This document shows, piece after piece, positions 783 to 60,893 of a DNA stretch of 64,000 nucleotides. The first letter of the stretch is position 1. Every line of letters starts with the position of its first letter. Origin of the DNA: Macrocybe gigantea. Taxonomy: Eukaryota; Basidiomycota; Agaricomycetes; Agaricales; Callistosporiaceae. The position numbers and the translations under genes are program-made. The notes below the pieces were generated by a model that did no database searches, was not told where the DNA came from, and saw nothing but the letters and a program-made list of their open reading frames with translations. The stretch spans positions 434,001 through 498,000 of the forward strand of contig SJRY01000228.1 of assembly GCA_011319805.1 (NCBI GenBank). Direction: 5' to 3'.

Positions 783-1982
783 TTATCCAAAGCCTGCCCA
801 TTCAATCGATAAATATGACACTTCCTTTTCCTTATTTTCGTCGTCCCAACAGCATAGGAGATGTGCCTTTTTGGTGGCGGTACCCAATCTCCCATGTGCC
901 ACAATCTCCATTGGTCTGAGGGCTGTCGATGGCCCTTCTAGCACTGTAGCCGCAAAATGGGAATGGTAACGCAAAGGATCACCTAATGGCGGAGTATGAG
1001 AGTCATTGTCAATATAACGGTTTGCACCTCAATACCTGGATAGACGAGATAATCCGCGCCAAATTTAATTCCGACCCCCATGAAGTATCCTTTTTCCCAT
1101 AGATCTCTGAACACGGCACATCGTGCTCGTTCCCGTAGAGTTAATGGATAGTCCCAGATGCCGGCCTTGCGTGCTGACTCGAGAGTATCGTATGATTTCT
1201 CAGAGTCACTGTACCATTTCAGACTGGATGATTCTGTTGGCACGACAATTGTGTGGGACATTGTAGCTGTCTTCGCTGATGAAGCATCCCGGTTCGGCGT
1301 TGTGGACAGCGAGGGACTAATTGACCCCGAGTTTTCTGTCCCGTTTCCTGCTGTTGAAGGTGTTGCAGATGGCAGAGGAGCAGCGGGTGTAATTTTAGCG
1401 CATCCGTCGCCTTCCGTCAGAGCTCCTACAAGATCATCCGAAGGCATTATTGCTAATTCTGCCAGCCGTTTCTCCTCTCGCCTGCGCCTCCTCTCGAGTG
1501 CCTCCGCAGAGATGGCACGAGTAAATTTAGCGCTCTCGGACGCACCCTTGGTCTCATTCATCGCAAGCTGCCGTCGCACGGAATCTTGGTATTCGGAATT
1601 CCATTCCTTCAATTGCTCGGTTGTCGGACGGTCATGGGCATTTGGATCGTCTACAAGAACTGCAATACCTGGAAATGCCGATGGAGATGTGAAAGATCGC
1701 ATTTCTTTGATTGTCGTACCTTTTGGATAAGCACGACGACCTCCTCTGGCATAAGAACCAGAGGGACTCCGAGGAACACATTTTGCTGAGACAGATGAGG
1801 CAAGGTTCCGACTAAGATGCCGCATATGTGGTGCTCTGAACGGAGCCGTGCAATGTCTGCGCTAGGGATGATTATGCATTAACCAGCGCATCGTTCACAA
1901 TCCATGCTTTACCATCAACATCCCAGACATACGCTTTCTTATTTGCTATCCGAAGTGGTATGGGGGGCGAGCCGACTGACAT
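783..1982 (-). CDS. SEN34: tRNA-splicing endonuclease subunit Sen34
   Basis: Catalytic subunit of the tRNA intron endonuclease, which cuts the 3' splice site of pre-tRNAs. The N-terminus reads MSVGSPPIPLRIANKKAYVW, followed by a domain with LRSEHHICGIL and LPHLSQQNVFLGVPLVL. The C-terminal catalytic domain has KFGADYLVYPG joined across an intron to DPLRYHSHF, then VAHGRLGTATKKAHLL. These supply the Tyr, His and Lys of the family's catalytic triad. Introns follow codons for VWDVD and for VYP(G). A third, 51-nt intron follows VLIQK, but the frame is one base short there (1719-1720): an extra G would give VLIQK-GIAVLVDD, as expected for the family. The start ATG at 1982 lies 131 bp from the divergent esterase gene, so the two probably share a promoter. 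The family assignment is secure; the frame break may be a sequence error. Confidence 0.92.
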
Positions 1983-2113
1983 GGGAAGACTGTGACAAGA
2001 AAGGTTGATCATGTGAGTCGCAAGGATATTGATTAGATTTATTCCCAGCCGCAACAGATATCCAGCTATTTATCAACTCTCCGCCTGGTGTATCGTCTAC
2101 AGTTCATTCGATT

Positions 2114-3043
2114 ATGGGCGCGAGAGTTCAGGATGTAATCATGCTCTTCGGAGATTCCATCACTCAAGGAGGTTGGGAAGATGGAAAAGAAGGATTTGGG
2201 CAACGGCTTTCACGTTTGCATCTAAACCAGTGGATATACGGTGCGAACTGACAGTTCAAACATATTCTAGACGTCTACGCAAGAAGACGAGATGTTCTAA
2301 ACCGTGGACTGTCTGGATACAATACTGAATGGGCTATGCCCGTTTTCGAACGGGTGTGTCCTATTCGCAATCCATTCCAAGTTTCGACTTGAATAAGCAT
2401 TCTTCGAGACTAGTGTCTCGTAAAGAAACATGAATCTGCGAATGTGCCCAAAATAAGGATACTAACAATCTGGTTTGGTGCAAACGATGCCTGTTTGAAG
2501 CATTCCGCCCAGCATGTTCCGCTTAACAAATTCACCTCCAACCTTCGCCAATTCGTGGACATGATCCAGTCTTCTGACTCACCATATCATTCGCCGGATA
2601 CGCGCATCATTCTCATGTCACCGCCCCCCGTGAATACATACCAGCGGGGAGCAGATCTGGCTTCGAGAAACCCGCCGCTGGCGTTGGATCGGGATTTTGA
2701 CACAACTAGGCGATATGCAAATGCAGTAAAGGAGGTTGCTGTAGAGAAAGGCGTGGCGTTTGTGGACATTTGGACTGCATTCTGGAAAGCTGCCGGGGAA
2801 GATGAGAGATCTCTAAGTAAATTTTTGTGGGATGGACTTCACCCAAACAGGGAGGGTTACGCGGTGAGACCCCTTCCGCAATTCCTGACATCGCCGATAT
2901 GCCCATTGACTTGCCGCGTTCTTAAGCTCGTCTATGACAAGATAATCAACTCCATTCGAGAAAGGTATCCCGAGGAGCACTACGACAACATTCCCTTTGT
3001 TTTCCCTCCCTGGCTTCAAGTCTTTCAAGATAGCATCGCTTAA
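2114..3043 (+). CDS. IAH1: SGNH-type esterase, isoamyl-acetate hydrolase family
   Basis: GDSL/SGNH hydrolase of the Iah1 type, which in yeast hydrolyses acetate esters such as isoamyl acetate; probably cytosolic, with no signal peptide. All SGNH blocks are visible: FGDSITQGG (nucleophile Ser) near the N-terminus, LNRGLSGYNTEW, WFGANDAC (block III Asn), and DGLHPN (catalytic Asp and His) near the C-terminus. Three short introns are inferred: after QRLS(H) with the acceptor before VYARRRDVLNRG, after PVFER, and after REGYA. Joining them gives the usual length of about 240-250 residues. The ATG at 2114 is the first in frame before the block I serine. It is transcribed divergently from SEN34. The in vivo substrate cannot be told from sequence. 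Confidence 0.88.
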
Positions 3044-4010
3044 TAGCTATGGAAACCGCTAGTCAAATTTCAATGACGCTTAGCCGCCGAGGACATGTCG
3101 TAACAAATGGTCCTTGCATTTCTGGGCAATTTCGAATCGTAGACTTTGGAGATGATAATATTCGGTGATAATCAAAAGAGACAAAGGGGATGATGGAACG
3201 GCGCGCTGAGATCTCCGTTCTTTACGAAATCGTCGCCAGGCACTTGAACACGGTCACGTGAGAAGTTGAACATGTGCCAACGCGGGCCAAATAAAAGACT
3301 GACATACCGGGAAAGACACTGCTGAGGACCGCCCTTCCGTGGCATTTCTGCATTCTGCACACGGGGGACTGGGTTCCGTTACTCTCCGCATCCTTGGCTA
3401 CCCGTAGACACCATTTCCTCGATTTTTGGGTGAGTATATGTTCGCTTGCGTGCTGATATCACATCGAAGCAAACTCATTTCGGCAGGGGCTGACGGTTTG
3501 GACCCACAGTTGTCCACAAGCTTGGTTCACTTACTCTTTTCGTTCGAGACGTGAGAATCTGTAACTTCAACTCGCTTGACCACAGCCTGCTTTGTCTTCT
3601 ATCGCTTCCCCGCTCATTCTCCTCTGTTTCCAACCAGGCGCGGCCTCCTCCGTGAACACGTTCTTTACGCCTCAAGGTTTGTCCATTTCGTGCCTAGGAA
3701 ATAGTCGGTGTGGCCATGTCCAACTCCGCTGGGCGAACCACATGGTCGGTCAACTTGTGGCCCACTTTGGTGGACAATGGTGCCCGTGTCCCGATCTCGA
3801 CTCTCCCACTCCGAAGAGGCCAAGTTACTGACATCCATTGTCTCAGTTGGCTCGTTATATAGTAGGCTTGTCTAGCGGCGTCCCGGTCTTCAGGGCCTCA
3901 GAACACTGGTCTGTCCCTATGGTCTACCATCTCTTTTAAGGACTGACAGACGCCCCCCTCTCCCTCCCTGATTCGCGCTCTTAAACAACTCTCTCACCTC
4001 GATCACCACT
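3044..4010. other. Intergenic region upstream of CDC25
   Basis: About 970 bp between the esterase stop and the CDC25 start. It contains only short unconserved frames. The part next to CDC25 is pyrimidine-rich with CTC and CCCTC runs (about 3950-4000), as is common for fungal 5' leaders. No TATA box, repeat or RNA gene could be identified with confidence. Confidence 0.5.
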
Positions 4011-6395
4011 GTGAACATCATGCGCCTCTTTCAACAACCTTCGCGAACATACTTCACTCCGGAAATCACTTTGATGGACTGGGATTTAGGAACGAGACAA
4101 CCTCGCAAGAAACAGAGACGGAGTTTTGAATCTGAAGCTGATTTAGAGGAAATGGCATTTTTTGCTCCATCTTCCGTAACACAGTACCTTCAGCCTGCTG
4201 CGCCATCGCGCAAGCGAAGCCAGCGTTTTCGTCAGCCCGACGACGTTGAAGACTTTTTATCTTCTGATTTAGAGGTTTCTTTTGCATCCACAGTTTCTCT
4301 CAATTCGCCGCCCCATGATAACCTGGCCTTGGCTGCTTCAGACGATTTCGCCATGGATATCTCTCCAATGCCCCCAACCAAGTCGACTGCAGCTCAGGCT
4401 CAAAACGGGCGAGGGAAGACGCGGCCCCGTGCCCTGACGAGCGGAGCTCGTCTCTTTGGCAGTGACTTGAGCAATCTGATGTCCAGTCCTCAGCTTGAAC
4501 CATCGCCCTCTTTCAAATCTACCGGCACCACTATGTCCCGAAAGACTCAACGTTCTGCTTTGCCGCTAGAATGGATGATGGCAAGTCGCTCGCCCGAGCC
4601 CTCTGAAATCGAGGTCTGTCTTTCCGTCTTTATCACCGCTACTGTGGCTGACTTTATTATGGACCCCCCCGCTAGCCGCTTCCCGAGCCACAGTCACCCG
4701 CCGATGATGCTATGGATATCGATTCATCCTATGCAGTGGACTCTAGCCCTGAGCGTCGCGATTTCTCAACGGCGCCGCATACCGCTGATCCCACCGTCGC
4801 CGGTTTCGATACCCTATTCTTCGGAACTATGTCCCCTGAACGCTCACTGGATGCTGCCATCAGTCCCGAGGCCAAGAAACGGCGTTCTTTGTCTCCTGAA
4901 CCCCTGAGGAGTTTCGAGCATGAAGGATCATCTTCCCCGATAGCGTCATCGCCTTCACAGTTGAAATTAGAGCGAATGGTCAACGCTGGCATGACAACTC
5001 GCCTTAACAAGCCCATGCTGCAAGGTCTGGGTGCTCCTTGCGCTCAAAGCAGGAGATCGAGGCGACCCGTTCTATCGGCGATGGTCAACCCATCCGACCT
5101 TAATCCATTGCAATCAGCCTACCCAGTTCTGACTTCTAACATGCACGATGAGAGTAGTCCGAAGGGTTCGCCTCCCGTTCGCCGCGCTTTTTCGGCCTTG
5201 ATCGCTCCATCTATCATGGAGCCCTCCTCCGACGAGTCCTTCGACGGGCCAGATATGTCATCGCCTGCGCAAGCATATGCGAAGCGCCAGCAAGTTAAGA
5301 CCATTAGGAGATGCGACGGTACTGAAGACTTCAGGCCGCTGACTGGTGCGACTGCGATGGTGCTGAGGGACAGCCCCTCCTCGCGTTTCTTCACCGCCGG
5401 CATGCCAGGTTTCGGTGACAATGAGGCATATGGCAAAATACTCCCTTGTCACAGAGTTCGCGAAGACGGTCTTATGCGCATCAGCAGCCAGACTGTGAAT
5501 CCCATCATTTGTTTTGCTCAATTTAGTCACTGATTACTTTGTAGCTGAATCAATTGCTAGATGGCAACTATGACGACAAAATAAACAACTTCTACGTTAT
5601 CGACTGTCGGTTCGATTACGAGTACGCTGGAGGACACATCCCTGGAGCTATCAACATCAACACAACTGCGGGCGTTGAAGAATTTTTGTTCTCCGCAAAC
5701 GCGAACAAACCCGCACCGTCGACAAGTGGAGATTCTGTCAGGAAGACCATATTGGTTTTCCATTGCGAATTCAGCGCTAAGAGAGCGCCGACCTTGTAAG
5801 TATACGCACCCGCTATTCACAGAGAGGCTACTAACCGGCTAGCAGCGCCAAGCACCTCAGAGCCAAGGATCGCGCAATGAACAACCACATATACCCGAAG
5901 ATTCACTTCCCCGAAGTCTATATCCTTGAGGGCGGCTACTGCCAGTACTTCAGAACATCGCCTCATCGCTGCGAACCCCAAGGCTACGTCACAATGGACG
6001 ATCCGACTCATGCTGCGTCCAGGAGAGAAGACCTAGATCAATTCCGTAAGGCCAAGTTCGGACGTCATAAATCTTACACTTATGGCGATGGCCCTGGCAA
6101 GACGTCTCTGGTGTCCCAGCCTCAGACGAAACGCAATACCGTTCCTACGGGCGGGCCTAACAGCCTCTTCGCAGCCGCTAATGCTGCCCGCACTCGCCGT
6201 GGTGGTAGTGGCAGCGGATTGTCAACATTGCCCGAAGACAGCAATACGACGGCCGACGGGGACGACACCGACACCGACATAGGTGACAGTCCTTGTCCTC
6301 CCCCCACGAAGACGAACATGTTCAAAGGCAAGAAATTAGGACGAGTTCCCCTCACACGTGCAGAGACTTACGGCGCCATGCACGTTCAATATTAA
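4011..6395 (+). CDS. CDC25: M-phase inducer phosphatase Cdc25
   Basis: Dual-specificity phosphatase that activates Cdk1 by removing inhibitory Tyr/Thr phosphates at mitotic entry. The first two thirds is a long Ser/Pro-rich regulatory region with many SP sites, typical of Cdc25. The C-terminal rhodanese-fold domain carries YVIDCRFDYEYAGGHIPGAI, then the active-site loop HCEFSAKRAP (Cys-X5-Arg), HFPEVYILEGGY and CQYF. Three introns are inferred: about 4614-4674 (acceptor before PLPEPQSPADDAMDID), one ending just before LNQLLDGNYDD (about 5496-5544), and one inside the codon after KRAPT with a TACTAAC-like branch site. The start at 4011 is the first ATG of the frame; a second Met follows three codons later. 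The tail after the catalytic domain is basic and Ser/Thr-rich. Assignment is firm. Confidence 0.95.
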
Positions 6396-9489: not shown

Positions 9490-12378
9490 ATGCAGCGAGA
9501 GTCAATCCCGTTCTTTTGGCACCAGCTATCGCAACGCTTCCATTCACTCGTCTGGTCGTGTCTGGACGCGGATCTCACGAAGACTGCCGTGTTTTACGCG
9601 GAGAGATATTTTGCCGCAAACCAGCACACCCATGATTCGCGTCACCTCTATGCCACGGCACTCCTCAAAGATGGCGTGCCTTACTCAGCGTTGAATCTGG
9701 TGGACAACCCGACGAGTGAACAGTGCAGCGGATGCTCTGAGATTAAATCCAAGTGTCTAGCTGCATTAAAGCGCTACAAGGATTCCCGTCTGGCTTTGCA
9801 GTCCGCTCTGGAAGACCCATCTTACATTCCCATCGGTTAGTCTTTCAACCAGGCGACCTGTCGTGCTTCGTCATCTCTCACATTTTGAACAATAGCGTCA
9901 TCGAGTACCCGCACGGCACGATATTTTCCTGACGAGGCATTGCTGCGCTGCAGATCTGGCGTCATGGCCGCCAAAGCTAATCAACCAGAACTGGCTGCCA
10001 ACTATTTTAGGGAAGCATTGACACTGAACCCGATGTTGTGGGAGGCGTTTGAAGGTCTATGTGCACTCGGTATGCCTGGCCATCGTGCATATCTTTGAAT
10101 CTGGAGTTCATCTGTGTCCTTCCAGGCGAAGCACCCGAGGTCGACGATATATTCCCTCCCCGACAATCACCCATACTTAAAATACACACCGACGAAAGCC
10201 AAGCAAGGGGTGGTCCTATTGCTACTGGTGCTGGATTTTTCACGCCAGAGTCGGGCAATGGTGGTGGCATATTTCGCAGTTGGAAGCCTGACACAACACA
10301 CCCTCAATCTTTCCGCATTCCTCCACCCTCGGGCCCTCGAGACTCAATGTACGGTTCTTGACGCTGGAACTTGTATAAGGAGCGTGACTGACAAGATTTT
10401 GTAGAGCAACCAATGACACGTCGTTTTATCCTGACAGCTCATTTCAGCAACTTCAACGCACCACTCGCACCCAGTCCTCCAACCTAGCACCACTACCCCA
10501 ACCCCACATATCACGTCCCCTTTCTTCTGCAGATGAGGGGGTCCTGTGACGAAGAGACAGCGGTCAACGGTACGACCGCCACAAGCTCTCAAGACGTCGA
10601 AGCCGAGTCAACCGACGGCGGCTGCAGACGATAGCTTGAAAAAGGCACGCGCACGCCCGGCCTTGATATTTGCTAATATCTTCTCATCTTCCGGTCGTCG
10701 TTCCCAGCCCACGACGTCCTCTAGGACAACTGGTCTCGGAAAGAGTAATGCCGTGCCTAAGCCATCTGGCGTACCTACGCGGCGTAGTACTCGATTGTTG
10801 AGCGGGGCAACAGCAAAACAGCCTGCGACTCAAAAGGTAAGCTATTGATATCTTACACTCTATTTGAAGTTCGGGTTCTGATGATTCCTGTGTTCTAAAT
10901 TTACGTAGCAGCCATCGACCCGAAAGCGACAACCAACACACGGCTCACGATCTGCCGAGTCAGAGATGGAGGAAGACCCTGCTACTGCTACCACCAGCGA
11001 GGTTGCTTATTCACAGTCGCCGCCTTCTGTAGCGCACACTCCACGGTCTGAAATTTCACCCTCCCCGACCAACAGGATTGCAGCACAAGAACAAGCAGCG
11101 CTACAAGAGCACGCGACAGAGCTAGCAGACTTCTACATATATAACATCATGCGGCAATTTGCTGCGGCGACTCGGGCGCTGGCAAAATTCGAGTGCCAGA
11201 AGTGTCTGGATGTGCTTGAGCTATTACCTCATCCTCACCAACACACGACAACGGTTCTTGCGATGGTTGGCCGGGCTCACTACGAGAAGCAAGATTTTGC
11301 TTCTGTACGTGTGTGATGAGACAATTCGTCGTACATGGTTCCTTACGTTTTCCTTTCAGGCTGAGCGTGCGTTTAAAGCCGTGCGAGCGCTTGATCCTTA
11401 TCGTTCAGCGGACATGGAAGTGTATTCAACACTGTTGTGGCACCTGCAACAGAGCGTAGATCTTGCCTTTTTGGCGCAGGAGCTGTTGAACATCAATCCC
11501 CGATCGCCACAGGCATGGATTGCTGTGGGCAACACGTTTTCGCTGCAAAAGGACCGATCACAAGCGCTAACGTGTTTTGGGCGGGCGACACAGCTGGATC
11601 CGATGTGCGCTTATGCCTATACTTTGAGCGGCCACGAGTCGATCGACGAGGACCTGGACAAGGCAATTGCGTTCTTCCAAAAAGCGCTGAGGAGTGATCG
11701 GAGACATTACAACGCATGGTGAGCAGACCAGACTCGGACAGGATCATGACAATGGGTCATCTGACCTCATCGCACAGGTACGGGTTGGGAACATGTTACC
11801 TGAGAATGAACAAGATTCGATTGGCCGAATACCATTATCGGGCAGCAGTCAAACTCTACCCAAATAATGCAGTCCTGCTGGGATGCCTGGGGATGGTAAG
11901 TGGAATCATGCTGACGTCTATTACGAGAAGCTGAAGGTTCCGAATTCTCTGACTGCGTCCGCAGACGGTTGAAAGACGTGGCGACAAGGATCACGCGCTG
12001 TCGCTGTTTGAGAAGGCGGTTGAATTGGCTCCCAATAACGCCTTGGTTCGTTATCGGAGGGCAAAAATTTTCATTTCCATGAAGCGATATCAGGTGAGTC
12101 AAGATACGGAAGATACGTGTGTATTAGCAATGACCCTGTGTCTGAACCTCCGACAGCCGGCAGCCAGAGACCTGGAATACCTGCGAAACACGACGCCGGA
12201 GGAGTCGAACGTGGTCTTCCAGCTGGCAAAGGTGTACAGACTGATGGGGGAAGAGACCAAGTCGGCGCAGACGCTGGCGGTGGCGCGGGATATTTCGCCG
12301 AAGAGCATCAGCAAGATCAAGAAGCTGCTAGAGACGGTGAAAGACGAGGGAGGGGAGGAGAGGATGGACGAAGGATGA
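9490..12378 (+). CDS. CDC27: Anaphase-promoting complex subunit Cdc27/APC3
   Basis: TPR scaffold subunit of the APC/C ubiquitin ligase, which binds co-activators. The N-terminal TPR half has LVWSCLDADLTKTAVFYAER and HDSRHLYATALL. A disordered basic linker follows (about 10,100-11,000). The C-terminal TPR array includes WIAVGNTFSLQKDRSQAL, AYAYTLSGHE, YGLGTCYLRM, AEYHYRAAVKLYPNN and LARRYQ-type repeats ending in ARDISPKSISKIKKLL. At least eight short introns are needed. In the linker the frame breaks at the G5 run 10537-10541: one more G joins PLSSADEG to GPVTKRQRSTVRPP. The true start may lie upstream, because a pyrimidine-rich acceptor-like stretch sits just inside this ATG (9490) and homologues differ at the N-terminus. 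The 323 bp before it shows nothing else clear. Confidence 0.92.
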
Positions 12379-20619: not shown

Positions 20620-20809
20620 GATGACGCGGCGATGAGAGAGTGTGTCGCCGTCAAATCGTGCAAGCAAATTGGGAGACAGACGATGAGGACGCGCAAGAGC
20701 TGTACGATGAGATAGTCTTCGGGGGCAGGGCAGAGGGCCTGAGGCTTGTTCGGTAATCTCTACGTCACGTGCTCATAGATGAGACCGGAGTTTGAATTCA
20801 CCTTCGACC

Positions 20810-22510
20810 ATGGTTTCCAAGCACGGTCCTACCGCCTTCGAAAGGGCGTCCTATTACAACGGAATCACCGGGAACGGCGAACACCCCGATCTCGTGTACC
20901 GCACCGACGCCCTCGTTAGGCCATTCCACAAACCCGCCGGCAGATTTTCTCACCTCCCCGTGAAATCACTTCGCGGAGTCTTCGGTACGGCGTTGAACAA
21001 GGTCTGGGACGTCGTCGGTCCCCAGATCCGCGACATCATCAAGGCGCGGGACATCTCGTGGTCCTCGATTGAGACGGCCTGCTTTTTCACTCATGGTCCG
21101 CCGGGAGAGGAGCAGAAGGGTGCTCTCGGACCGGTTGTGGTCTGGATTGGCGTCAAGCCCGGTCTGACCTCGCCCGACACCGCCCACGATGCCTCCCAGG
21201 AGATCCTTGCTCTTCTGAAGGAGAATGGAGTCGAGGACGTTGAGGTGGAATGGAGAGAGGCAGTCTCGTAGAGGCTTGCAGGCTCCCCGCTCATGGAACA
21301 TGTCGATTCCATCGATGCCACCCACTGCGTTCGCCGATTCCTGACTGTTCTTCTCGCCATTCCTCTTACCACTGAAGGCATGGAGAAGGAAGACTCCCAT
21401 GGCACCATTATGTTCTGGATGCACGAAAACGTAGACGAAAACGGCAATCCCAGCGACAAGGTGTACGGGATCAGCAACTGTCATGTTCTCCGGAAGGACA
21501 CCACCGTCGACTACGTGCTCAAGGGCGCAGCAGCCAAGGATCACGTTCGCGTCTGCGGCCTGCGTCACTTCCAGGCGGTCTGGATCAGATCACGCAGGCC
21601 GTTGCTGACAACGTGGTTGACGCTGACTTTTTTTGCTCGCGACATCGCTCGACTCCAAACGAATGGAGATCAGAGCGCGGCGAACGCGAAGAAGATAGAG
21701 CGGATCCAATGCCTGTTGGACGACAAGAATGAAGCCATTGCCGACCTCGAGAAGCTACACGTCGAGATTACGAAGTACTGGTCGAACATTACGTTTCATC
21801 GCAATATCGGCCACGTTGAATACGCACCCGCCATCAAGGTCGACCAAGGCCGCACCAACTATACCGCCGACTGCGGCTCGTTCTTGGCTGCGAAGGCCAA
21901 GATCCAGCCTGGCTTTGCAGGAAATGTCGTTGATCTCGGCGCGCTTTATCTTTGTCGCATTTCCCTCGTCTGACGAAGTCAACCCTTGTGCAGGAGCGAA
22001 GTACTCTGCTTCCGAGCTCACGAGCATGTTCTATCCCCAGAGTGGTGATCCGATCCGACCACGTTCAAGTATCCCGAGGCGAGGATGCTTAGGATCGTTG
22101 GTTGCGCTATGAAGGAGGAGCTTGCCGTCCCTGCGGAGTTCGATAATGAAGGCGATCGGTGTCTCATGGTCGGTAAAGACGGAAACACCACCGACTTCAC
22201 TGTCGGGCGCTACTCCGACCTCGAATCCTTCACTCTCAACGAAGTTGGCGTCGAACCCAGGGAGCTCGCCATCTACAACGCCGGCAACAAGGGTGTCGAG
22301 GTCTTCTCCGCCAAAGGAGACACCGGGTCTCTCGTTTGGCATATGAAGGACGGGAAGGCTCGTATCGTTGGTCAACTCCATTCTGGCAACAACAGAGGCG
22401 GTTCGACCAGCAACCACGTTACCTATTGCACCCCCGGCCGGCACCTCCTCGCCGAGATCAAAAAGAAATATAAGCACGCCGACTTCTATCGCACCACCTG
22501 GGACGCTTGA
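20810..22510 (+). pseudogene. Decayed trypsin-fold protein gene (basidiomycete family)
   Basis: Reads as a large fungal protein with a trypsin-like serine-protease fold. The His-site region is YGISNCHVLRKDTTVDY and the Ser-site region is VFSAKGDTGSLVWHMKDG, near the C-terminus (QLHSGNNRGGSTSNHV). The normal GDSG serine is Thr here (ACC, 22322-22324). Lesions along the same homology: an in-frame TAG at 21269-21271 between VEWREAVS and RLAGSPLMEHV; one G short at 21574-21575; one extra T in the T7 run 21628-21634, which restores the frame; and a 5-bp tandem duplication of GATCC at 22047-22056. An intron at 21939-21993 would need a GC donor (gcgcgc). The start ATG is 20810 and the stop is 22508-22510. 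Family identity comes from my recall of motif patterns. Pseudogene status is likely but partly depends on sequence accuracy. Confidence 0.75.
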
Positions 22511-23132
22511 GGACAGGTTCGTCTTTCTTCCGCCTCGTGCATATATGTCATTGACGAATGTTACAGCCTGTGCGTTGGTGGTTAGCTCCTCGTCGTCTCC
22601 ATCTCTGCTCTGGCCTCGTCACTTCCACCATGCCCCATTCCCCAGTTCTCGTTGTCGACTGCGAATCCATCTCTCCACACTCCCAACTGCCCTTACTCGC
22701 GTTTCTTGGCTCCCGGTTACGCTCTCGGCTCCCGGTTACGTCCTCGTCGTCGTTGGTGCATGGGCGTGTCTTGCTGGGTGGATCGCCACTCAGGTTCGTG
22801 GTTTTCTTCCATCTCGTCTTTCGCAACGATCACTGATGGCTTCATTCCAGTTTCTTGGCGATCCTTTCACGCTTCTGCTCCTTCGACTGTGTTTCGGTTC
22901 CCTGCTCGTTATTTATCGGTTGGTTGTCAGTAACGGCGGATGTTTTGATCGTTGAATCGTCGCCCTGGTACATTTCTCCTCTCTGCGTTGTTCTTTCGTA
23001 CTTCTGACTGACAACGTCGCGCCCAGGTCCTGGCTCGTAGATTCGTCGCATCTGTTACCATAGCCTTCGTCGTCGGACGCTCTCATCCTCTCGGCACTGC
23101 TCTTGTTTTCCTTGATACATATAAGGGTATTA
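22511..23132. other. Intergenic, short direct repeat
   Basis: About 620 bp of C/T-rich sequence after the pseudogene. A 17-bp unit containing GGCTCCCGGTTACG occurs twice in close tandem at about 22705-22745. Several overlapping frames of 60-90 codons are open but none resembles a known protein. The right end is the TTA target duplication of the inverted-repeat element. Confidence 0.45.
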
Positions 23133-23346
23133 CACTGCTGTGGCCGGAAGGTATAACCATGGGAAAAAGCCTTTAAAATCCACATCCTATTTACTCCAGA
23201 GTTCTATCAATAGAAAAAGTAAATATTTCAATAACTTGATTTTCCGGTAAAAGGACTGTCATTTTCCATAGAAAAACCTCCAGAATAAATAGGATGTGGA
23301 TCTTAATACATTTTCTCTTGGGGTCAAGACACCAGCCACAGCAGTG
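23133..23346. mobile_element. Non-autonomous TIR element (CACTA-like MITE)
   Basis: A 214-bp element that is nearly a full palindrome. The left end begins CACTGCTGTGGCCGG and the right end is its inverse (CCAGCCACAGCAGTG); the outermost 12 bp match perfectly. The inverted arms extend to about 70 bp, with a second well-matched block ATCCACATCCTATTTA (left) against its inverse near 23280-23302. The element is flanked by TTA on both sides (23130-23132 and 23347-23349), a 3-bp target duplication. CACTG termini plus a 3-bp duplication fit the CACTA (EnSpm) superfamily; PIF/Harbinger also makes TWA duplications but has different termini. There is no coding capacity, so mobility would depend on a transposase elsewhere. 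Confidence 0.8.
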
Positions 23347-27402: not shown

Positions 27403-28792
27403 ATGTCTTTCTTCGATCTCAAGACGCCGTCTACCAAAACTGCCCAGAAACATGCAGTTGACCCTACACTGCAGCCATGGGTCGAGAAATAGTGCGCGTC
27501 TACTGAAGCCGCGCATATGACAGTTATTCAACGCCACATACAGTCGGCCAAAAACCATAGATGATGTATCTGCACAAGATCATACTGTCGCCGTTTTGCG
27601 CAAGACGCTGACCTCTGCAAACGTGAACCTCATCACCTTTATTGTGCGCTTTCCATGCCTTTAACGCCTTTAACCTATTCTAGCTTCCGCACATGCTGTT
27701 TTATGGCCCCCGGGAACGGGAAAAACGTCGACGATATTGGCATTAGCACGGCAACTATATGGGTGCGTCGTTGTATGGCGTGGTCCGCTGCTGAGTGTCC
27801 GACCTCTGAGCTAGCCCAGACAACTTTCGAAATCGTGTACTCGAGCTGAACGCGTCAGACGAGCGTGGCATTGCTATCGTCCGCGACAAGATTAAGTCCT
27901 TCGCCCGCCAAACCCCCGTGCACAAGCTGTGGCATCTGATGGCAAAACCTATCCATGTCCGCCGTACAAAATCGTAATTCTAGATGAGGCAGATTCCATG
28001 ACACAAGATGCGCAAGGTGCTCTCCGACGTATAATGGAAACTTACGCTCGAATAACACGATTTTGTTTGGTTTGCAACTACGTCACAAGGTTAGTCCTCC
28101 GGTTTGCTAGAGTCAAATATCACTAAGGACGTGTTAGAATAATAGAGCCTGTTGCTTCGCGTTGTTCCAAGTTTAGGTTTACTCCATTGGATCCGTCTTC
28201 CGCCTCAGCGAGGCTCGCCCAGATTGCAACAGCAGAGCATGTAGTGGTCGACTCTCCAGTCATAGATACTCTCATAAGCACGTCGGCAGGAGACCTTCGT
28301 CGTGCAATCACATATCTCCAGTCTGCATCGCGGTTGGCGGCGTCTACCGATCCCCCGACGCGAATCACACCCCGAGATGTACAAGAAATCGCTGGCGTCA
28401 TTCCCGACGCAATTGTGAAGGATTTTGCAAACGCACTAGGCATTGACGGCGGGATAGCGATGGATGTTGATGGTTTCTCGAAGCAGAAGAAAACGCCCTT
28501 TGAGCACATACAGGCACGAGTCAAGGAACTGATGCGTGAAGGCTTTTCAGCCAGTCAGATCCTATCACAGGTGCGAACTGGTCTGAATGAGATTTATATC
28601 TTGGCTGATGCATCCATACGATCACGACAGGTTCATGACCTAGTTATGTCACATCCAACGCTAAACGGCTGGCAAAAATCGCAATGCGCCTTAGTATTTG
28701 CAGAAGCCGATAAGGCATTGAACGATGGAGCAGATGAAGAATTATGGACTCTGGAAATTGCACTCCGTGTTCATAGGGCTGTTTCATCATGA
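27403..28792 (+). CDS. Replication factor C small subunit (Rfc2/RFC4 type), frame interrupted
   Basis: AAA+ clamp-loader subunit that opens PCNA onto DNA. The start gives [20 protein letters not shown], then [25 protein letters not shown] (Walker A start), [38 protein letters not shown] (Walker B), [35 protein letters not shown] (arginine-finger SRC motif), [13 protein letters not shown] and a C-terminal collar domain. Two one-base deficits break the frame: C5 at 27707-27711, where GPPGTGKT needs six C, and C5 at 27913-27917, between FARQTP and [11 protein letters not shown]. Because the motifs on both sides are perfectly conserved and the gene is essential in other fungi, base-calling error is more likely than inactivation. 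Four short introns were placed. Confidence 0.9.
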
Positions 28793-31359: not shown

Positions 31360-32334
31360 ATGTCCTTCCAGCCCACTCTCCGCTCATGGTTGGCTGCATC
31401 TGTCCGATGCCCCCCAGTCCGAGCCCTGCTAGGACTCTTTCTCGGTATTTTGGGACTTACGAAATCGACCCAAACAAGCCTCTAGAAACTGTGGAGGACT
31501 GGTCAAGACTCCAGAGACGACGCGCCGAGGTTCAGACATTGTGTAAAACGCTTTCCTTACAATTGGAGGCCCTCAAGCCACATCTGATGCTTTGCCCTAT
31601 TAGTTGATCATATGTCGCAATATGGCACTACGCAGACTAAGGACAACGCCTTCCAACCACGACAAATGTTGCGGCGGCCCGCTCCGCATGCGACAGTTTC
31701 TGCCCTTCTCGCGTCGGGAGCCCATTTTGGTCACGCGTCCACGCGAATGAACCCGAATTTCATGCCCTACGCATACGGTACTCGAGCCGGCATCACCATC
31801 ATTGACCTCGATCAAACATTGCCAATGCTGCGGCGCGCCGCGAATCTCGTTCGCGCAATCGCTATTGCAGGAGGCCAGATTGTCTTCGTGGGAACAAGAC
31901 CAGACCTCAGCCCTGTTGTACAAAAGGCGGCGGAGCGACTAGGTTCTCAAGGCTATCACGTCGGTGAACGTTGGTTGCCTGGGACGTTGACGAACAAAAT
32001 CCAAATGCACGGCCTTGACGTGGTCAGTGAACACAAGGTCGTCCCAGACCTTGTTATTCTTCTCAACCCCCTGTCAAACATGAATGCAATCCGTGAATGC
32101 GCAATTGAACACGTCCCGACCATCGGTATCGTCGATTCGAACACAGACCCAAGGATTGTGATGTATCCTATACCAGCGAACGACGAAAGCACAAGGACAG
32201 CGGAGCTTATCGCCGGATTATTGAGTGTTGCAGGTAGAGAAGGAGTTGCCTTGCGGACAACGGAGGAGCAGAAAAGACAAAAACGAGCCCAACAGCGGCA
32301 ATTACATCGACATCGAGCATCCCTAACTCAATAG
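31360..32334 (+). CDS. MRP4: Mitochondrial ribosomal protein uS2m
   Basis: Small-subunit protein of the mitochondrial ribosome. Conserved S2 blocks: VSALLASGAHFGHASTRMNPN, FMPYAYGTRAGITIIDLDQT, GGQIVFVGTRPDLS, WLPGTLTN, PDLVILLNP, ECAIEHVPTIGIVDSNTDP and MYPIPANDES. An intron at 31543-31603 joins AEVQTLF to DHMSQYGT. The N-terminus is uncertain. The ATG at 31360 opens MSFQPTLRSWLAASVRCPP, a good mitochondrial presequence, but it is out of frame with the rest unless the C6 run at 31410-31415 has one more C. The in-frame ATG at 31386 gives a less convincing presequence. I take 31360 as the likely start. The C-terminus is basic and Gln-rich. Confidence 0.9.
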
Positions 32335-39279: not shown

Positions 39280-41338
39280 TCAGTTGTTATGCGTCGCGGA
39301 ACCATAGGATCTATGATGCTGAAGGTGATGTTGCTCGTCCTCTGGGATAACATCAAAACCGCTCCGGCCAAGTTCGGAGGGGAGCGCGGCTGTTTCATCC
39401 AAGGCGGATGCAGAGAGTAGGCCCTCTGATTCATCCTGTTCCTCGTCTGTGACATGAACATGTGATGGTTCTGGAGCTGGTCCGGGAAGACAAGGAGGCA
39501 CTGAAACAAGATTGTTGAACAGGAACTGCGGCGCATTGGATGGACATGAGAAAAAAAGCGTAATTTATCTTGTTCAGCCAAGTCAAATGAGAACTGAGGT
39601 GAAATGTTTACCGTGCCGTAACTAAATTCAATGTTAGCATCAGGACAGCCGCGATGCGTCACTACACTTACACCAAAAGCGTAAAGCCGAGGACTTGCAA
39701 AAGGGAAATCGGGAAAAGCAGCCTTTCCCATCCGAGGCCGAGACTGATCAACCAGATGGAAAGAGTCCTGCAAGTGTCAGTAAGGGAACGCGCGTGGCGC
39801 TAACATGCCGAGTGACGCTCAAGCCAAAGTAATTGAAGAGAGAGATGCTGCATGCGATCGCAACGGAGGACCAAAGTACCGTCGGAGTGCCGATCATCTG
39901 ATCCCAACCTCGAGGCAAGTCGAAGAAGGGAGACTTGGAAGAAATTGACGGAATGGCCAGAATAGGCATCAAAAGGACTATCGAAAGTGCGCCGAAGAGC
40001 CCCTCATAGCCTACTGCCACCAAAGGGGCCACGGAGAAGCGAGCTGACAACAGGGATCGATACGGGTTTTATGAGCGGTATCAATTTGAAACAGACCCAT
40101 GATTTTTTCTGGAAAGGCGGGTATATCAGATTTCGTTACGGGGTGACAAGAGAATGAATGAATTTACCTTCCACGACAAACTGAAAGGCGGTACTGGGAA
40201 AAAGCAGCAAGCAAGGAGTGTGAGAAGCTGAGTGACAGACCGGATGGTGACTCACAAAACTTGCGCAAAGATAATGAAGAAGACGCCTGTGCAACGAACG
40301 AAGATGAGTAAGGACGGCTGCAATGATCGGAAGAAATACTCGCCGACGAGGACCTGGGTTAGTGCGGGTTCTTCGACAGGTTCCGGAGGGGGAAGACCGG
40401 ACTTATGATGGCCAGTCGTAGATGGAATGGGCGCATCCTTAATGGCGTCTTTGATGAGTGAGCCGCTGAAACCAACCAAGCCCACGCCAGCCATTACGAC
40501 AATGAGGGATATCCATCTTGTGAGGCTGTCAGCAGAACAACGTAGATAAGATTCGAAAAAGACTAAACTGATAAAGCCAGAGGCGGCGTCGGAGGAACAG
40601 GACACTGAGAACCCCTACAAATAGAACGAGTGCACCACGAGTCATTTGATATATCGAGACGGGCGTGTAAAGGAGGCCAACGTTCATCAACTGGTGGGGA
40701 AGGTAAGCATGGTGATGAAGTCGACGTTAATGACCCTACCGTTGTACCCGTCAGATCGCATGCAGCCGGAATCCATAGAAGAAGAATGTTCCGTCCGGTG
40801 AGATGCTGAGATGATAGCTTGGATGGGATGGGAGAATCGCTGTCGGAGTCGGAGGGAAGATGGACCGAAGAGGGTGGGCGACGTGTGGCGAACCACGTGT
40901 AGAGGACTGGGAGAAAACCTTTGGACGCAGAAAAAGAAGGATGAGGGGAGCATATGGAGTGTTACAAAAACGTGACAATTACAGAGCATTTCTCCGACTA
41001 GTGCGGTATGTTAGGCGTGCGTCAAAGATGTGCAGGAAGAAAGGTTGTAACGCACGGAACATCTGAAGCGTCTGCCAGACCGGCTGCTCGAAGAGTACGC
41101 GATGGGTAGGGTCTGGATCTGTGCAGTTCTCGACGCATTGCATGTCCTGGGAGGTTAAGCGAATTAATGAAACCTGGCGGATAGAGAATGAGTGGGACAT
41201 GCCTGCCACTTGGTCCAGAGCGAGTTACTGGATCCCTGGGATACGGAAGCGGTGAGCAGGGAGATGCTAGGCATTTGGGAGACGTACAGTGAGGATCATT
41301 CCTCCAAGGAGGATGGGTATGTAGAACGATGAGGGCAT
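39280..41338 (-). CDS. SLC35F6-like membrane transporter (drug/metabolite transporter superfamily)
   Basis: Multi-pass membrane protein of the nucleotide-sugar/EamA type, related to human SLC35F6. It starts MPSSFYIPILLGGMILTGSS, followed by NSLWTKWQDMQCVENC. Helical blocks include LLYTPVSIYQMTRGALVLFVG, WISLIVVMAGVGLVGFSGSL, VAPLVAVGYEGLFGALSIVLL, FFDLPRGWDQ, NYFGLSVTRHVSAT and TLSIWLISLGLGWERLLFP, then a polar, acidic tail. One base is short at 39789-39795, where an added G gives SATARSLTDTCRTLSIW, the family pattern. The intron at 41147-41202 has a GC donor (GCATGT). About eight introns. Divergent from the arrestin-like gene, 253 bp away. Substrate unknown. Confidence 0.85.
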
Positions 41339-46180: not shown

Positions 46181-48146
46181 TCATGAAGTCTGCGACGACT
46201 CCATCTGCCGGTCAGATGCAGAACCGTTAGGCACCGCTCCGGAGCCTAGCAGTGGCTCATGAGCGAGATAAGACTCGGGCGAAGAGCATAAAGGATCGTA
46301 CGATGACATAGCCTCTGTCTGTCTATCGATCGAGGACGACGTCGACTTGACGGAGTCTTGGTGCTTTATTCGACGCGAAGGGTCGCCGTCATCATCAGTC
46401 GATATGCCGTTGACGTCGGATTTCGCATCGTCCCCAATGCTAATCTGCGGTATGGAGGACGCTTCGAGCACGGGGTACGGTTTGCCGTGGTGGTACTTGC
46501 AGCTCGGGAGTGAGAGGACGGTATGATGGGACTAGGGGTGGATGCTGCTGCCAATGCTGCTGTCCACGTATTGTAGGGCTCCGGAGACGGTGTCCGATGC
46601 TGCTCTGCGGCATTCGGCGCGTTGACGGCACGCGTGTCGTTAGGTTGTGTTGATGAGCTAATCACTCCAGAGTTGGACGACTGGATGGAATTACGTTTGC
46701 TAGCGGACGAGTTATGTGTTGTAGTAGTTGGTGCGGGGGATGGGGTGGATGAAGACGAAGGAGATTGATTAGAGGCCAGGGTAGAAGGCCCTGGGCTGCT
46801 GGCAGATTGCGAATCTGCATCAGGGGCACTAACTGACTGCGCTGTAGGTGCAGCTGCTTCTGCTTTCCTCTTCTCTTCAGCCTCCTTTCGTTGTCGTTCC
46901 TCATGCTCAATCATTGAGAGGCGCATGGCTTCCATTATCATCAGCTTCGTGGAAAAAGAACAATGAGGCCGTGTCACATAGCTGGCTTTCCGCTTGACTC
47001 ACCTCTTCCAGGTCTTGGCCACCCATTCCTATAAACTGCTCGTACTGTTGGTTTTGAGCGCCATGTTGACGCCTTCTCGATCTTCGGCTTCCGCTGGCCT
47101 CGCCACTATCAGCACCAGCTTCCTCTGGGCTTAGGGCATGGACGCGTCCACTCGTGATTCCGACAGGAATCAACCTATCTCCAACTTGCCGCATGATAAT
47201 GCGTCGGTTGGCACGTCTCGCAACCGCGGCTTGGACAGCGGCGAGTTTGGCCTCCCAATCGGGGCGAATCTGGTCTGTAAGAGATTCGTTATACAGGCGC
47301 AGGTTCACAGACTGTGTACTTGCCTGTTGTGACGACCTCGGGGCTGTCGGCTCCGAAGCTTTTCTGACGTCTTTTGTGACCAGGCGTAGAGGACCCCTCG
47401 AGTTGCTGATGAGCTCTCGATAAATCCGCCCATGAGGGAGACTAGTGAAATATAACAGCACTAGTCTTAGTTTGGAAGGAGTGCAGATAGACGTTGATGA
47501 CTTACGGAACCGTCAGCGCCAATGCCTGCGCGCCAAGGGGGAGGCGTATAGACCACCCCAAAGTTCTCTTGGACACAGTATGGGCATGCAGCAGGCTCGG
47601 ATACGAGATGTGTCGTAGTCGGCTCGTTTCGCTTGATTTGGACAAAACACTCCGTGCATATGGCTTGGTCACAACAGCGGGAATGATTGATATTTGGAGG
47701 GTAGTACTATATAAAAAATTAGGGTAGTGCCATGCCGAGAAAGACACAAGAGAACCAGCGACGCACGAGGAAGCAGATGGGACACTCGACGGCGCCTCTG
47801 TAGACGGCGACCTCCGGTTTGCTCGGCTCCTTGAGGTTCGCTGGCTTCTTGCTGTTGCTGGATCTCGAGGAGCTTGGGGACATGGTGGCTTCGATACGCG
47901 TGACGGTCTCATGCTCAGGAGAGGGAAACTCCTTTCTGGCGGTGAGGATCTGGTCATCATCCCAGGAATCGTCATAATCCTCGAGGGGCCTGTAGAAAGG
48001 AGCCAGCTTGCGTGCGCAGATGAGTTGTGTGACGATTGCCTGGTTCCAATCTCGAGGGCCGGTGTAAACACCCTGGGAGAGAGATAGCCATGGTCGACGG
48101 TCTCCTCGTGGTGGCCTCGGCCTGAAGAGGAGGCACTATTGCCCAT
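46181..48146 (-). CDS. SIP5: Sip5-like RING-type protein, frame interrupted twice
   Basis: Homologue of yeast Sip5, which interacts with the Snf1 kinase and the Reg1/Glc7 phosphatase. The start is [20 protein letters not shown], then [20 protein letters not shown] and [20 protein letters not shown]. The zinc-binding region is [31 protein letters not shown] and AACPYC. Next come [21 protein letters not shown] and a Glu/Lys helix with [20 protein letters not shown], and finally a long Ser/Thr/Pro-rich tail. The frame is one base short at 48075-48077 (after HGYLS) and again at 46472-46475 in the tail; one extra C at each restores a continuous protein ending in MESSQTS. The intron at 47275-47322 has a GC donor (GCAAGT) and is 48 nt with no stop, so it could be retained. 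Confidence 0.87.
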
Positions 48147-53559: not shown

Positions 53560-53728
53560 AAGAGATGTTTTAGTGTAGAATGTGATTTATATTGGACTTG
53601 ATGACATAACAACGTGCAATTCTTTTTTTTGGGTCCAATCCTCACCAACCTCCCCACCCCCTCTTTTTCATCATAATACCCGTCTTTTTACGTTCATTAC
53701 CCCAGTACGCTCCTTCTATACTGTCAAA

Positions 53729-54907: not shown

Positions 54908-55952
54908 ATGCTGTCCAATCTCTTCAGCGTTTCCCTCCTCGCCCTCCCATTGGCCGCGCTTGCCAACCCTCATGGCTCGGCCCACCATGCCCGTCATCAG
55001 GAAATTGCGAAGCGTCACACTGGCGACGTCCAGCTTCACAAACGCTTCTCCGGCGCCAGGTGGACCTTTTACGATGTTGGCCTGTGAGCGTTCACCGGCA
55101 TTGCCTTTAACTCTCTGAGAAGTCACTGATCCATCACCACCTTGTTTACCCAGTGGTGCTTGCGGAAAGTATAACGTCGAGTCCGATTTCGTGCGTATCT
55201 TTCACTCCTTTCCCCGGCACAGGATGACCAAGACTGACGAGTATTGAATATCAGATCGTTGCATTGAACACTCCTGTACGTTTTCAGTTTCTGGCAAACT
55301 TGTCGTCCGTTCTCACTCTCATCTCTCTAGCAATACGGAGGAGGCTACCCGGGACCCAACTGCTTCAAGAAGATCACCATGACATACAACGGCAAGACAA
55401 CCCAAGCCACAATCATGGATCAGGTGTGTCCATCGCGTTTTTTTTTTCGGCCACGAAGTTGCCTACCTGACCACACGTGTTTGCCTTGCAGTGCCCTGGA
55501 TGTCCTTACGGCGGTCTTGATCTCTCCCGCGGCCTCTTCCGATTCTTCGCATCTGAGAGTGAGGGCGTTCTTTACGGTACTTGGTCCTTCAACGATGATG
55601 GCGGCAGCCCACCTCCTCCTCCCCTCCTCCCCCAAAGCCAACCACTAGCAAGTACACCCCTCCTCCCCCTCCCCCTCCCACTACGACCTGGAAGCCTTCG
55701 CCTACCTCGACTTGGGAGCCTCCCAAGGTCTCTATCACGATTGCACTCAGCAGCAGCTCTGCGAAGCCCTCGCCATCTTCGACCTCTGCTACTCCATCTA
55801 CCTCCTCTGCGAAGAGTTCTTCGTCCTCCGTCAAGCCCTCTTCGGCCTCGAGCAGCGTCATTCCCGTTCCGACTGGTCCTCAGAACATCCAGGCTGCCAA
55901 CCAGGCCATCCTCAACATGGGACAGCTCGCCGTAGCTGGCGCTGCGGCTTAA
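54908..55952 (+). CDS. Secreted double-psi beta-barrel protein, copy 2, frame interrupted
   Basis: Paralogue of the previous gene. It has a signal peptide (MLSNLFSVSLLALPLAALA), a pro-region, ARWTFYDVGLGACGK, a short exon, then CFKKITMTYNGKTTQATIMDQ and CPGCPYGGLDLSRGLFRFFAS with YGTWSF. After that the frame is one C short in the C4 run at 55621-55624: adding a C gives PPPPPKPTTSKYTPPPPPP and a Ser/Thr-rich tail ending NMGQLAVAGAAA with a stop at 55950-55952. In the frame as given the tail would be a Leu/Arg/Pro-rich nonsense sequence. Introns follow the same pattern as copy 1, which supports duplication. Confidence 0.82.
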
Positions 55953-57631: not shown

Positions 57632-57875
57632 CCTGGCAATCACTCGACGGTTAGGAAAAGGGGTATCGCCTGAGTCGGCAAGCGCAGCCGCGAGGACGTC
57701 GACAAGGCTACGGTATCACTGCTAGGTGGAAGTGAGCACAGTGCGATGAGGTTTGAGGAGGAGGAGCAGAGATAAGACTGCGGAAGGTGGGGAGGAGGAA
57801 GACTCGGATGCCTCATTGCACTTGGCAACGAAACTAATTAATTATAATACAATTAATTTTGTAATTTCCTACCCG

Positions 57876-60017
57876 TCACGAGACAATCTTCCAGTAAACT
57901 ACACTACTTCCGAACCCAGTCGTCGCAGTTTGTTCCACTCGGACGTCATGTTTCCAAGTCTTGCCATGAAGATCCTTGACGTCGTTGGCCGTGCGCGTCC
58001 GTAACATGAATCGCCCACCCTCCGGAGTCTCAAGCGACGTCGGCACAGGCACGCTTGTTTTCTTGCCGTTTCCAAGCTCATATTCGTAGTTTTTGCCCCA
58101 CAGAATCAAATCACGGCCTCCGACTTCACCTGTCGTGGCCAGAGTCAAGAGGACATGCCCCGTAGGAGATATTGAAACAGCATCAGGTCCAAGTGGCTGC
58201 AATGACTGAGCCTCTTCGCTGACTGACCCTGGTGTTAACTTCACGTCATGAGCAACGCAGCCATGGTGCTTACATTCGACCAAACCGCTGACGTTTCTCG
58301 CTTTCAGAGGTGTACCCTGGGCATTGCTGTAGATATTGCTCCCTAAACCCCCCACTGGCCGTTGCCACACATCAACAGGTCTATGGTGGGACAGGAGAGT
58401 GTTCATCGACGTGCATCACGGTAAATGCAGTCAAGTCACCGCCTTTGGTTATTTCAGCTGTCAAAACACCTTACAGCAGACTGGAGAATGACAAGAAGGT
58501 TCACCTGCGGTCACATCTACACATATCGTCTGTGTCTGCGGAGGGGCTGTCCGCCAGAGGATGACTTCGGTAGGAACAGTAATTGTGTTCACAACAACTT
58601 CACTTCCAAGCCCAATCTGTCTGCAACGCATTCGTCAACCACAATTGTAAAGAACGCAACGCAAATCTGTTACCCGTATTCGTTGGCACCCCAACCAAGA
58701 ACTCGACCTGTCTTCGTACGTGCAAAACTATGTCTCGCGCCCGCAGCAACCTGAGCAATCTGAACGTCCTTGAGAATCGGGATCTCATAGATATGTGTGC
58801 AAAATCTGATGTCATTGTCATTAATCTCATCGAGGTTTTTGGACGGTTCCGGAGGAGTGGGCCGGACAGAGCGAGAAGACCTGGCATAAGGGTCCATGAT
58901 TGCCTGTGGAACAAGCTCGACGTCGATGTATGTTTTCTGCGCTTTTGGATGGCTTTGCGAGTCGGGGTGGAGGATCTGGAACCTTCGGAAACCCAATTGC
59001 GCATAAGTGTTTGCCTTTTTGGTGACGGGATGAGCAAACGCTCGGCCATTCGAGGTAACGGCAAGTAGATGATCGTTCCCTGCTACAATCGACGTGAACC
59101 TATGGCGGAGGGCTGATAAGCACGATTGCTCTCTTCTGACGAAATGAGGTCTAACCTTTCTCCCCACGCAAGTGGATCTTTGGGGGCAATCTCGACGAAA
59201 TCAATGGTTTCTTCCTCACCCCAAAGCCACCCAGTTCCCCACCACGAGTCACTGGCAGGGGTTGGCATTCCTGGTTTGAGATTTTGTTCCGCTGAGAATG
59301 CGGACAAGGCGTATATTTTCCCAGAAGCTGAAAGGGCGTAGACTCTACCCTCTGTCAACTTCAGTTGTACGATGTTCTAAAGTGTTCCAAACGGATGCTT
59401 AGAAAACTGTAAATAGGCGGAATGGAAAAAAGGTGACGCACTTTGTTTTTCAATGTGAGAGTGGCTCTGCCTCGCTTGTCGGGATCATCGCCCGCAAAAG
59501 TAGCACCCCATTGGTATACGTCACCGCGTGCATCAACGCATGCAGCATGGTTCCGGTGGAGGCAAAGGTCACGGAGCGCGACACCGTCAAGCCATTTCGC
59601 GATGGAGGGTGTGCGAATGGAATCGCCAGCAAGTGGTGTCAGTGTATTGGATCTGGGATGTCATGGCAGTAGAGGGCAAGTCGGCGTAAACTTTTATTAT
59701 TTCCTGCCAATCGAGCGGAAGGCATCATACCTATTAGAGCCCCAGACCACGGTGAGAAGTTCTTCCGACTCTCCCGCCGCGCCGCCTGGAATGAGCTGCG
59801 GTTCAGCGGATGACCGCTGCCCTCTGACGTCTCCACTGTCATTGTGGATATTTCGGGTATGCGCATGCCACAGCAAGTAGGCGACGACGGCGGTCGACGA
59901 AAGCGCGATTCCCGGAACGGTTCTGAGCCGTACGCCGCCCCTCGATGCCGACGAAAATGCTCTAGACCGAAGTTGGGCAAATGATGGTCGGAGTAGAGGA
60001 GCCAAACGCTTCAGCAT
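57876..60017 (-). CDS. FMP25: Mitochondrial RCC1-repeat protein (Fmp25-like)
   Basis: RCC1-propeller protein of mitochondria; its yeast homologue Fmp25 is needed for complex III assembly. N-terminal presequence MLKRLAPLLRPSFAQLRSRA, then a membrane segment (GIALSSTAVVAYLLWHAH), then propeller repeats: LTVVWGSNRSNTLTPLAG, DARGDVYQWGATFAG, KLTEGRVYALSASGKIYALS, DHLLAVTSNGRAF, ARHSFARTKTGRVLGWGANEYG, QIGLGS-type turns, and ending RDLILWGKNYEYELGNGKK and VVYWKIVS. About six introns, all in phase where checked. The 60,017 start is the first ATG with the presequence. The 191 bp to the next gene is also minus strand. Confidence 0.87.
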
Positions 60018-60208
60018 GAGGCAGTTCGTTCGTCAAGACGTACAAAACGGACGGTTGGTAGAAACTGATCCCGTTTAGAGCCGGATGAAACATGGTGGTG
60101 AGACACCGTGTTCAGATCACGTGTACAGCTCACTACACCCTACAGTACAGTACATAAAATGCGGAAAAATGGTCATCTAGCTGCGATGCGAGGCTCGATC
60201 CATACGGC

Positions 60209-60893
60209 CTAGATAGGAAGACAGAAACGATATGCATTCTGTAAATTCAAAAAAGAAACGAGCAAATTACCTCCATTGTAATCGTTTCTTGTCCATCCTT
60301 GTCGACGGTCCTCGAAGCCGACCCCGCCTGGACGCTCGGTGTGCTCACAAAACGCGTCAGACTCTCCAACTTTGGCACGTCAACCCCAAAGCGCTCCGCT
60401 AGGCGCTCCTGCTCTGTCCGTGTTTTGACCGCCTTTCGTGCGTCGAGCAGGTTGCTCAGGGTGGCACCATGAAGGTGATTCCGGGCAGGTTGGGGGCAAA
60501 AGCTTCAGATTCAGCCTGATTTCGTGATTCGAACAATTTAGCCGTGTTCCCTGCCTTGTGTAACGACACGAGCAGTGTAAGAATGTTATAGAGACCAATC
60601 AAACAGATAAAAAGGGAACCGCGTACTGTTCGAATGGTCTGCATATGGTGGTCCACTCGGACCGCCCCCAGTCTATTTAAGTTCGCCATGAAGTGAGGAT
60701 CCTGGGCATCCCTTTCAATTGCTGCCGAGGTGTGAGCGGAGCAATGGGTCTGAGTGACGCCGAGCGTGCCTTCATTTTTCACTTCGCTAGCAAGTGGTCT
60801 CGGACCGGCCTGTTCGCCAACGGAGGGCGTTCTTGCGCCGGCCCACGAGGGTTTAGGAAACTTACGCGCTGCTTTTGAGGTCGAACTTCCCAT
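60209..60893 (-). CDS. Conserved fungal protein of unknown function, frame interrupted
   Basis: Starts MGSSTSKAARKFPKPSWAGA, with a glycine at position 2 (possible myristoylation site MGSSTSK). It continues with ERDAQDPHFMANLNRLGAVR and VDHHMQTIRT, then AKLFESRNQAE, then NHLHGATLSNLLDARKAVKT, EQERLAERFGVDVPKLES and LTRFVSTP. The pattern is shared by fungal proteins I recall without a named function. The frame is one G short at 60481-60482: one more G joins APNLPG to NHLHGATL. Two introns: one after QTIRT and one after TITME, the latter leading to a short last exon ending FCLPI. Confidence in the last exon is low. Confidence 0.7.

What the first reader, a model, noticed from the sequence alone, without database searches (positions are those of the whole stretch)
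1719..60482. Recurrent one-base deficits, mostly in G/C runs, break conserved genes across the window
In at least nine loci the protein homology continues perfectly if a single base is added, usually in a short G or C run: SEN34 (1719-1720), CDC27 (G5, 10537-10541), the trypsin-like locus (21574-21575), RFC (C5 at 27707-27711 and 27913-27917), uS2m (C6, 31410-31415), SLC35F6-like (39789-39795), SIP5 (48075-48077 and 46472-46475), DPBB copy 2 (C4, 55621-55624) and the conserved unknown gene (60481-60482). All ask for one more base, never one fewer, apart from a T7 run in the pseudogene. The same direction and run type, hitting essential genes, points to homopolymer under-calling in the assembly rather than pseudogenisation. 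It means automatic gene models here would be truncated or mis-spliced.
Basis: partly seen in the sequence, partly recalled or inferred. Interest (0 to 1): 0.8.

Follow-up and report, generated by a model that had tools for sequence, protein, structure and literature searches.

The report
Missing bases from assembly errors
Genes in this stretch of a fungal genome look broken because the assembled sequence drops single bases, mostly beside or inside runs of one letter; a sister copy of the region is one base longer at nearly all of these places, so this is a data-quality problem and not biology.

Summary
The window lies in a partly diploid assembly of an agaricomycete fungus; a collinear copy, about 94% identical, lies on contig C75. 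At 9 of the 10 claimed sites that align to it, C75 is one base longer and the frame runs on across the site. The trypsin-like site has no C75 counterpart, but a paralogue on C249 is one base longer there. The first RFC site is short in both copies; orthologues match its two sides in different frames. A codon-phase model over 160,192 aligned columns finds the broken copy is the shorter one in 25 of 26 confident coding cases, 14 in the window copy and 11 in C75; simulated insertions are detected as well as deletions. Disagreement between the copies climbs with G/C run length in coding sequence: 4 of 37 at five, 3 of 6 at six. Best reading: deletion-biased homopolymer under-calling in both haplotypes, not pseudogenes, recoding or splicing. 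Corrections: two sites are misplaced by 2 to 14 bases, one is an A/T run, and at five the copies also differ by a substitution. No reads were available.

The parts
1719..1720 (-). SEN34: A/T run at a probable exon end, one base shorter than in C75
   Evidence: Alignment; frames by eye; model posterior only 0.07; tRNA_int_endo domain downstream
10537..10541 (+). CDC27: G run one base shorter than in C75
   Evidence: model 0.53; TPR hits on a later piece
21574..21575 (+). Trypsin-like locus: one base shorter than the C249 paralogue; no counterpart in C75
   Evidence: no Pfam hit for three pieces
27707..27711 (+). RFC, first site: C run inside the Walker A motif (motif name recalled), same length in both copies; orthologues show a frame change in both
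27913..27917 (+). RFC, second site: C run one base shorter than C75, which is in frame
   Evidence: model 0.99
31410..31415 (+). uS2m, near the N terminus: one base shorter than in C75
   Evidence: by eye; model 0.001, called noncoding; family
39789..39795 (-). SLC35F6-like: one base shorter than in C75; C75 in turn is shorter at about 39735 (by eye)
   Evidence: model 0.74
46470..46475 (-). SIP5, second listed site: one base shorter than in C75, just outside the stated G run
   Evidence: model 0.97
48075..48077 (-). SIP5, first listed site: one base shorter than in C75
   Evidence: model 0.99
55621..55624 (+). DPBB copy 2: C run one base shorter than in C75
   Evidence: model 0.998
60492..60496 (-). 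Conserved unknown gene: G run one base shorter than in C75 (reader placed it at 60481-60482)
   Evidence: model 0.99

Best explanation
The assembly is of a fungus with two differing nuclear haplotypes (probably a dikaryon), and both were kept for this region. The consensus carries length errors of the long-read kind: runs of one base, mostly G or C, are written one base too short. Each haplotype is hit separately, at about 2 to 3 confident cases per 10 kb of coding sequence, so genes look frameshifted although they are not. Shown: the sister copy is one base longer, the broken copy is the shorter one, the load on the two copies is similar, and disagreement rises with run length. Inferred: that the reads hold the longer runs, and that the data are nanopore-like without accurate short-read polishing.
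For: 9 of 10 alignable sites one base longer in C75 with the frame running across; the eleventh site longer in a C249 paralogue. Broken copy is the shorter in 25 of 26 confident coding events (p = 4e-7 against an even split), 14 in the window copy and 11 in C75 (p = 0.69 for a difference). Control: simulated deletions 385 right, 1 wrong, 84 unsure of 470; simulated insertions 418 right, 0 wrong, 71 unsure of 489. In coding G/C runs the copies differ by one base in 1 of 144 runs of four, 4 of 37 of five, 3 of 6 of six, 1 of 1 of seven; in A/T runs 1 of 171, 1 of 41, 0 of 6. Where the sister has another base, it lies on codon position 3 in 9 of 11 and a transition there would lengthen a run of the short copy in 10 of 11, against 43% at ordinary third-position differences.
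Against: No reads or platform information were seen. 11 of 25 confident cases are not plain run-length differences, and several plain ones are in runs of one or two bases. At posterior 0.6, 8 of 42 events point the other way. In noncoding sequence A/T runs disagree as often as G/C runs, so the G/C preference rests on coding runs only (8 of 44 against 1 of 47 for runs of five or more, p = 0.013). A fungal nanopore study reports more over- than under-long runs after polishing (PMC7500977).
Confidence: 0.92

Rival explanations
1. Consensus drop-out at places where the haplotypes differ: reads of both haplotypes were mixed in polishing and the conflicting base was lost. Also an artefact, but driven by mixing and not by run length.
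For: In 11 of 25 confident cases the sister copy has a different base at the missing position.
Against: 14 of 25 have no such difference; the different-base cases lie beside a run that a transition would lengthen in 10 of 11, against 43% expected; coding disagreement depends on run length.
Confidence: 0.05
2. Real frameshift mutations: the two nuclei carry different broken alleles and cover for each other.
For: The differences sit on two separate contigs, and each copy is intact where the other is broken at 9 of the 11 claimed sites.
Against: Nearly all events are one-base losses, 25 of 26; frame-breaking one-base gaps outnumber three-base gaps in confident coding sequence, 26 to 8; the first RFC site is short in both copies; SIP5 and the SLC35F6-like gene appear broken in both copies at different places.
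Confidence: 0.02
3. Programmed -1 frameshifting or unusual splicing restores the frame.
For: The first RFC site has the same length in both copies; the SEN34 site is at a probable splice junction.
Against: At 9 of 10 alignable sites the sister copy needs no such event. The doubly short RFC run is expected by chance if about a third of six-base G/C runs are under-called (own arithmetic).
Confidence: 0.02

Closest known systems
Homopolymer-length errors in nanopore-only fungal assemblies (Drechmeria coniospora, PMC7500977; passages seen)
   Same: Conserved genes appear frameshifted because of run-length errors in a long-read consensus; short-read polishing repaired them there.
   Different: There errors were more often over-long runs after polishing; here the confident cases are losses.
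Gene-fragmenting errors in long-read assemblies (Kastor, PMC12007338; passages seen)
   Same: In one nanopore-type bacterial assembly most indel errors were false deletions, most often after runs of four to five bases.
   Different: There A/T runs gave about twice as many errors as G/C runs; here G/C runs dominate in coding sequence. That tool uses reference genomes; here the sister haplotype is the reference.

Membership tests
Homopolymer under-calling in a long-read assembly | Errors are losses of one base | tested here: met
   25 of 26 confident coding events; control for insertions; 34 of 42 at posterior 0.6
Homopolymer under-calling in a long-read assembly | Rate rises with run length | tested here: met
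   Coding G/C runs: 1 of 144, 4 of 37, 3 of 6, 1 of 1 for lengths four to seven
Homopolymer under-calling in a long-read assembly | The missing base belongs to a run | tested here: inconclusive
   14 of 25 repeat a neighbouring base, some in runs of one or two; 10 of the other 11 fit a run lengthened by a transition
Homopolymer under-calling in a long-read assembly | Reads of the isolate hold the longer runs | not testable with these tools
   No reads available
Pseudogenes | Damage concentrated in one lineage, by insertions as well as deletions | tested here: not met
   14 against 11 between the copies, 1 of 26 not a loss
Programmed -1 ribosomal frameshifting | The frame break is conserved between alleles | tested here: not met
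   Not conserved at 9 of 10 alignable sites; conserved at the first RFC site
Programmed -1 ribosomal frameshifting | Slippery sequence followed by a stable structure | not tested
   Not searched for

The most novel reading that the evidence does not exclude
The RFC deficit inside the Walker A motif, the same length in both copies, is real and is overcome by recoding or editing, which would be a new way to make an essential clamp-loader subunit; the other sites would still be errors.
Probability: 0.02. Interest if true: 0.75.

Novelty: not a real feature. Interest (0 to 1): 0.15.

Why it matters
Claims of gene loss, pseudogenes or truncated proteins drawn from this assembly would be unsafe. At 2.1 to 2.7 confident cases per 10 kb of coding sequence per copy, roughly a quarter to a third of 1.5-kb coding sequences would carry a false frameshift (own arithmetic, assuming random placement). 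It also shows that an assembly that keeps both haplotypes can be checked without reads: the codon phase of the differences between haplotypes tells which copy is broken.

Tried and rejected
The first settings of the codon-phase model penalised gaps in coding sequence and gave 12 confident one-base events (8 in the window copy, 4 in C75); they were relaxed, keeping the codon usage, and one search is what is reported. A first hand count of run-lengthening substitutions, 11 of 12 (tested), had left out three rows; it was redone by script as 10 of 11 (posterior 0.9) and 13 of 15 (0.6), and only these are used. Shortage of long runs against synonymous shuffles: G/C runs of six or more, 4 seen and about 21 expected in the window copy, 3 and about 19 in C75; A/T runs 7 and 10 seen, about 21 expected in each. 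Both classes are short, which selection alone could give, so this is not used as proof. In the Fisher test one A/T run that differs by two or more bases was left out. No Pfam hit was found for three trypsin-locus pieces, for the DPBB, unknown-gene and 61400-62500 pieces, or for the SLC35F6, SIP5 and unknown-gene pieces. Paper searches did not identify the assembly.

Full report
What the window is. It is C227:434001-498000 of an assembly of 41.2 Mb in 333 contigs. A collinear copy lies on C75: 61,080 aligned columns in the window with 5.0% mismatches. Elsewhere the chaperonin family PF00118 shows at least two further contig pairs with near-equal scores (C66/C126 and C68/C228) beside loci seen once, and PF00562 shows three loci on three contigs. 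I read this as a partly diploid assembly in which C75 and C227 are alleles. A large segmental duplication is not formally excluded, but would not change the argument. The best named relatives of the RFC C-terminal piece are agaricomycetes, first Hypsizygus marmoreus at 68%, so the organism is inferred to be an agaricomycete, probably of the Agaricales.

The claimed sites. Ten of 11 align to C75, and at 9 of the 10 C75 is one base longer. Translation of 120 bases either side shows a frame that runs across the site in C75 where the window changes frame. At SEN34 this needs a probable intron that starts directly after the run, read by eye; a tRNA endonuclease domain follows further on. At the first RFC site both copies have the same length. 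Orthologues P0003 and P0010 match LPHMLFYGP in one frame and PPGTGKTSTILALARQLYG in another, in both copies, so both appear to lack a base inside the Walker A motif. At the second RFC site C75 runs on in frame and the window does not. The trypsin-like site has no counterpart in C75, but a C249 paralogue is one base longer there; that paralogue is itself one base shorter than the window about 200 bases away.

Which copy is broken. In the window, one-base gaps are about equally common in the two copies, 83 in the window copy and 91 in C75, most of them outside confident coding sequence. To judge the coding ones I built a hidden Markov model that uses the concentration of differences on codon position 3 (rates 0.015, 0.010 and 0.098 at positions 1 to 3 in the first round), codon usage and stops, and decides for each gap whether the frame follows the longer or the shorter copy. 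It was run on C227:434001-598000 against C75, 160,192 aligned columns. At posterior above 0.9 there are 26 one-base coding events; the broken copy is the shorter one in 25, 14 in the window copy and 11 in C75. The exception, 54498, and one of the 25, 54503, form a pair five bases apart that cancels out; without that pair the count is 24 of 24. At posterior 0.6 it is 34 of 42. Simulated gaps show that insertions would have been seen: deletions 385 right, 1 wrong, 84 unsure of 470; insertions 418 right, none wrong, 71 unsure of 489. By region there are 8 and 5 (plus the exception) in the window and 6 and 6 in the next 100 kb, so it is not peculiar to the window.

What kind of error. In confident coding sequence, aligned G/C runs differ by one base in 3 of 4008 of length two, 3 of 747 of three, 1 of 144 of four, 4 of 37 of five, 3 of 6 of six and 1 of 1 of seven; A/T runs in 3 of 3213, 0 of 710, 1 of 171, 1 of 41 and 0 of 6 for lengths two to six. 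In noncoding sequence both classes rise with length, A/T no less than G/C, as real polymorphism would also give. Counting the first RFC site as a seventh six-base run that is short in both copies, a miss rate near 0.36 per copy would give about 3 unaffected, 3 discordant and 1 doubly short run among 7, as seen; this is my arithmetic on tiny numbers, but it means that the doubly short RFC run needs no special cause. Of the 25 confident events, 14 repeat a neighbouring base (10 of them G or C). In the other 11 the sister copy has a different base: 9 of 11 are on codon position 3, and in 10 of 11 a transition would lengthen a run of the short copy, against 43% at ordinary third-position differences (p = 0.0014 for each). 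The simplest reading is that a mostly silent substitution lengthened the run in one copy and the longer run was then written one short.

Both copies of one gene. The SLC35F6-like gene is short in the window copy at 39793 (model 0.74) and, by eye, in C75 at 39735; a third gap at 39343 is short in C75, but the model assigns the break to the window copy (0.84) and the frames do not settle it. SIP5 is short in the window copy at 46470 and 48075 and less surely in C75 at 47282 (0.52 against 0.05). Damage to both copies at different places is expected of random error.

Verdict. Run-length errors in long-read assemblies are well described (PMC7500977 and PMC12007338, passages seen; the other papers were seen as listings only). 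The sequencing platform here is inferred, not known.

Noticed in passing
window 23133-23346: A 214-base element with inverted ends (CACTGCTGTGGC... / ...GCCACAGCAGTG) flanked by TTA on both sides, where C75 has a single TTA; similar sequence on 10 other contigs. It looks like a CACTA-type miniature transposon (class name recalled).
   Followed up: partly
window 20799-23132: A block with the trypsin-like gene stands where C75 has about 1.06 kb of unrelated sequence, so the gene differs in presence between the copies; a 95% match to its first 800 bases lies on C249.
   Followed up: partly
G000, contigs C66 and C126: Chaperonin hits with identical or nearly identical scores and exon lengths on both contigs, perhaps an unresolved duplicate; the sequences were not compared.
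   Followed up: no
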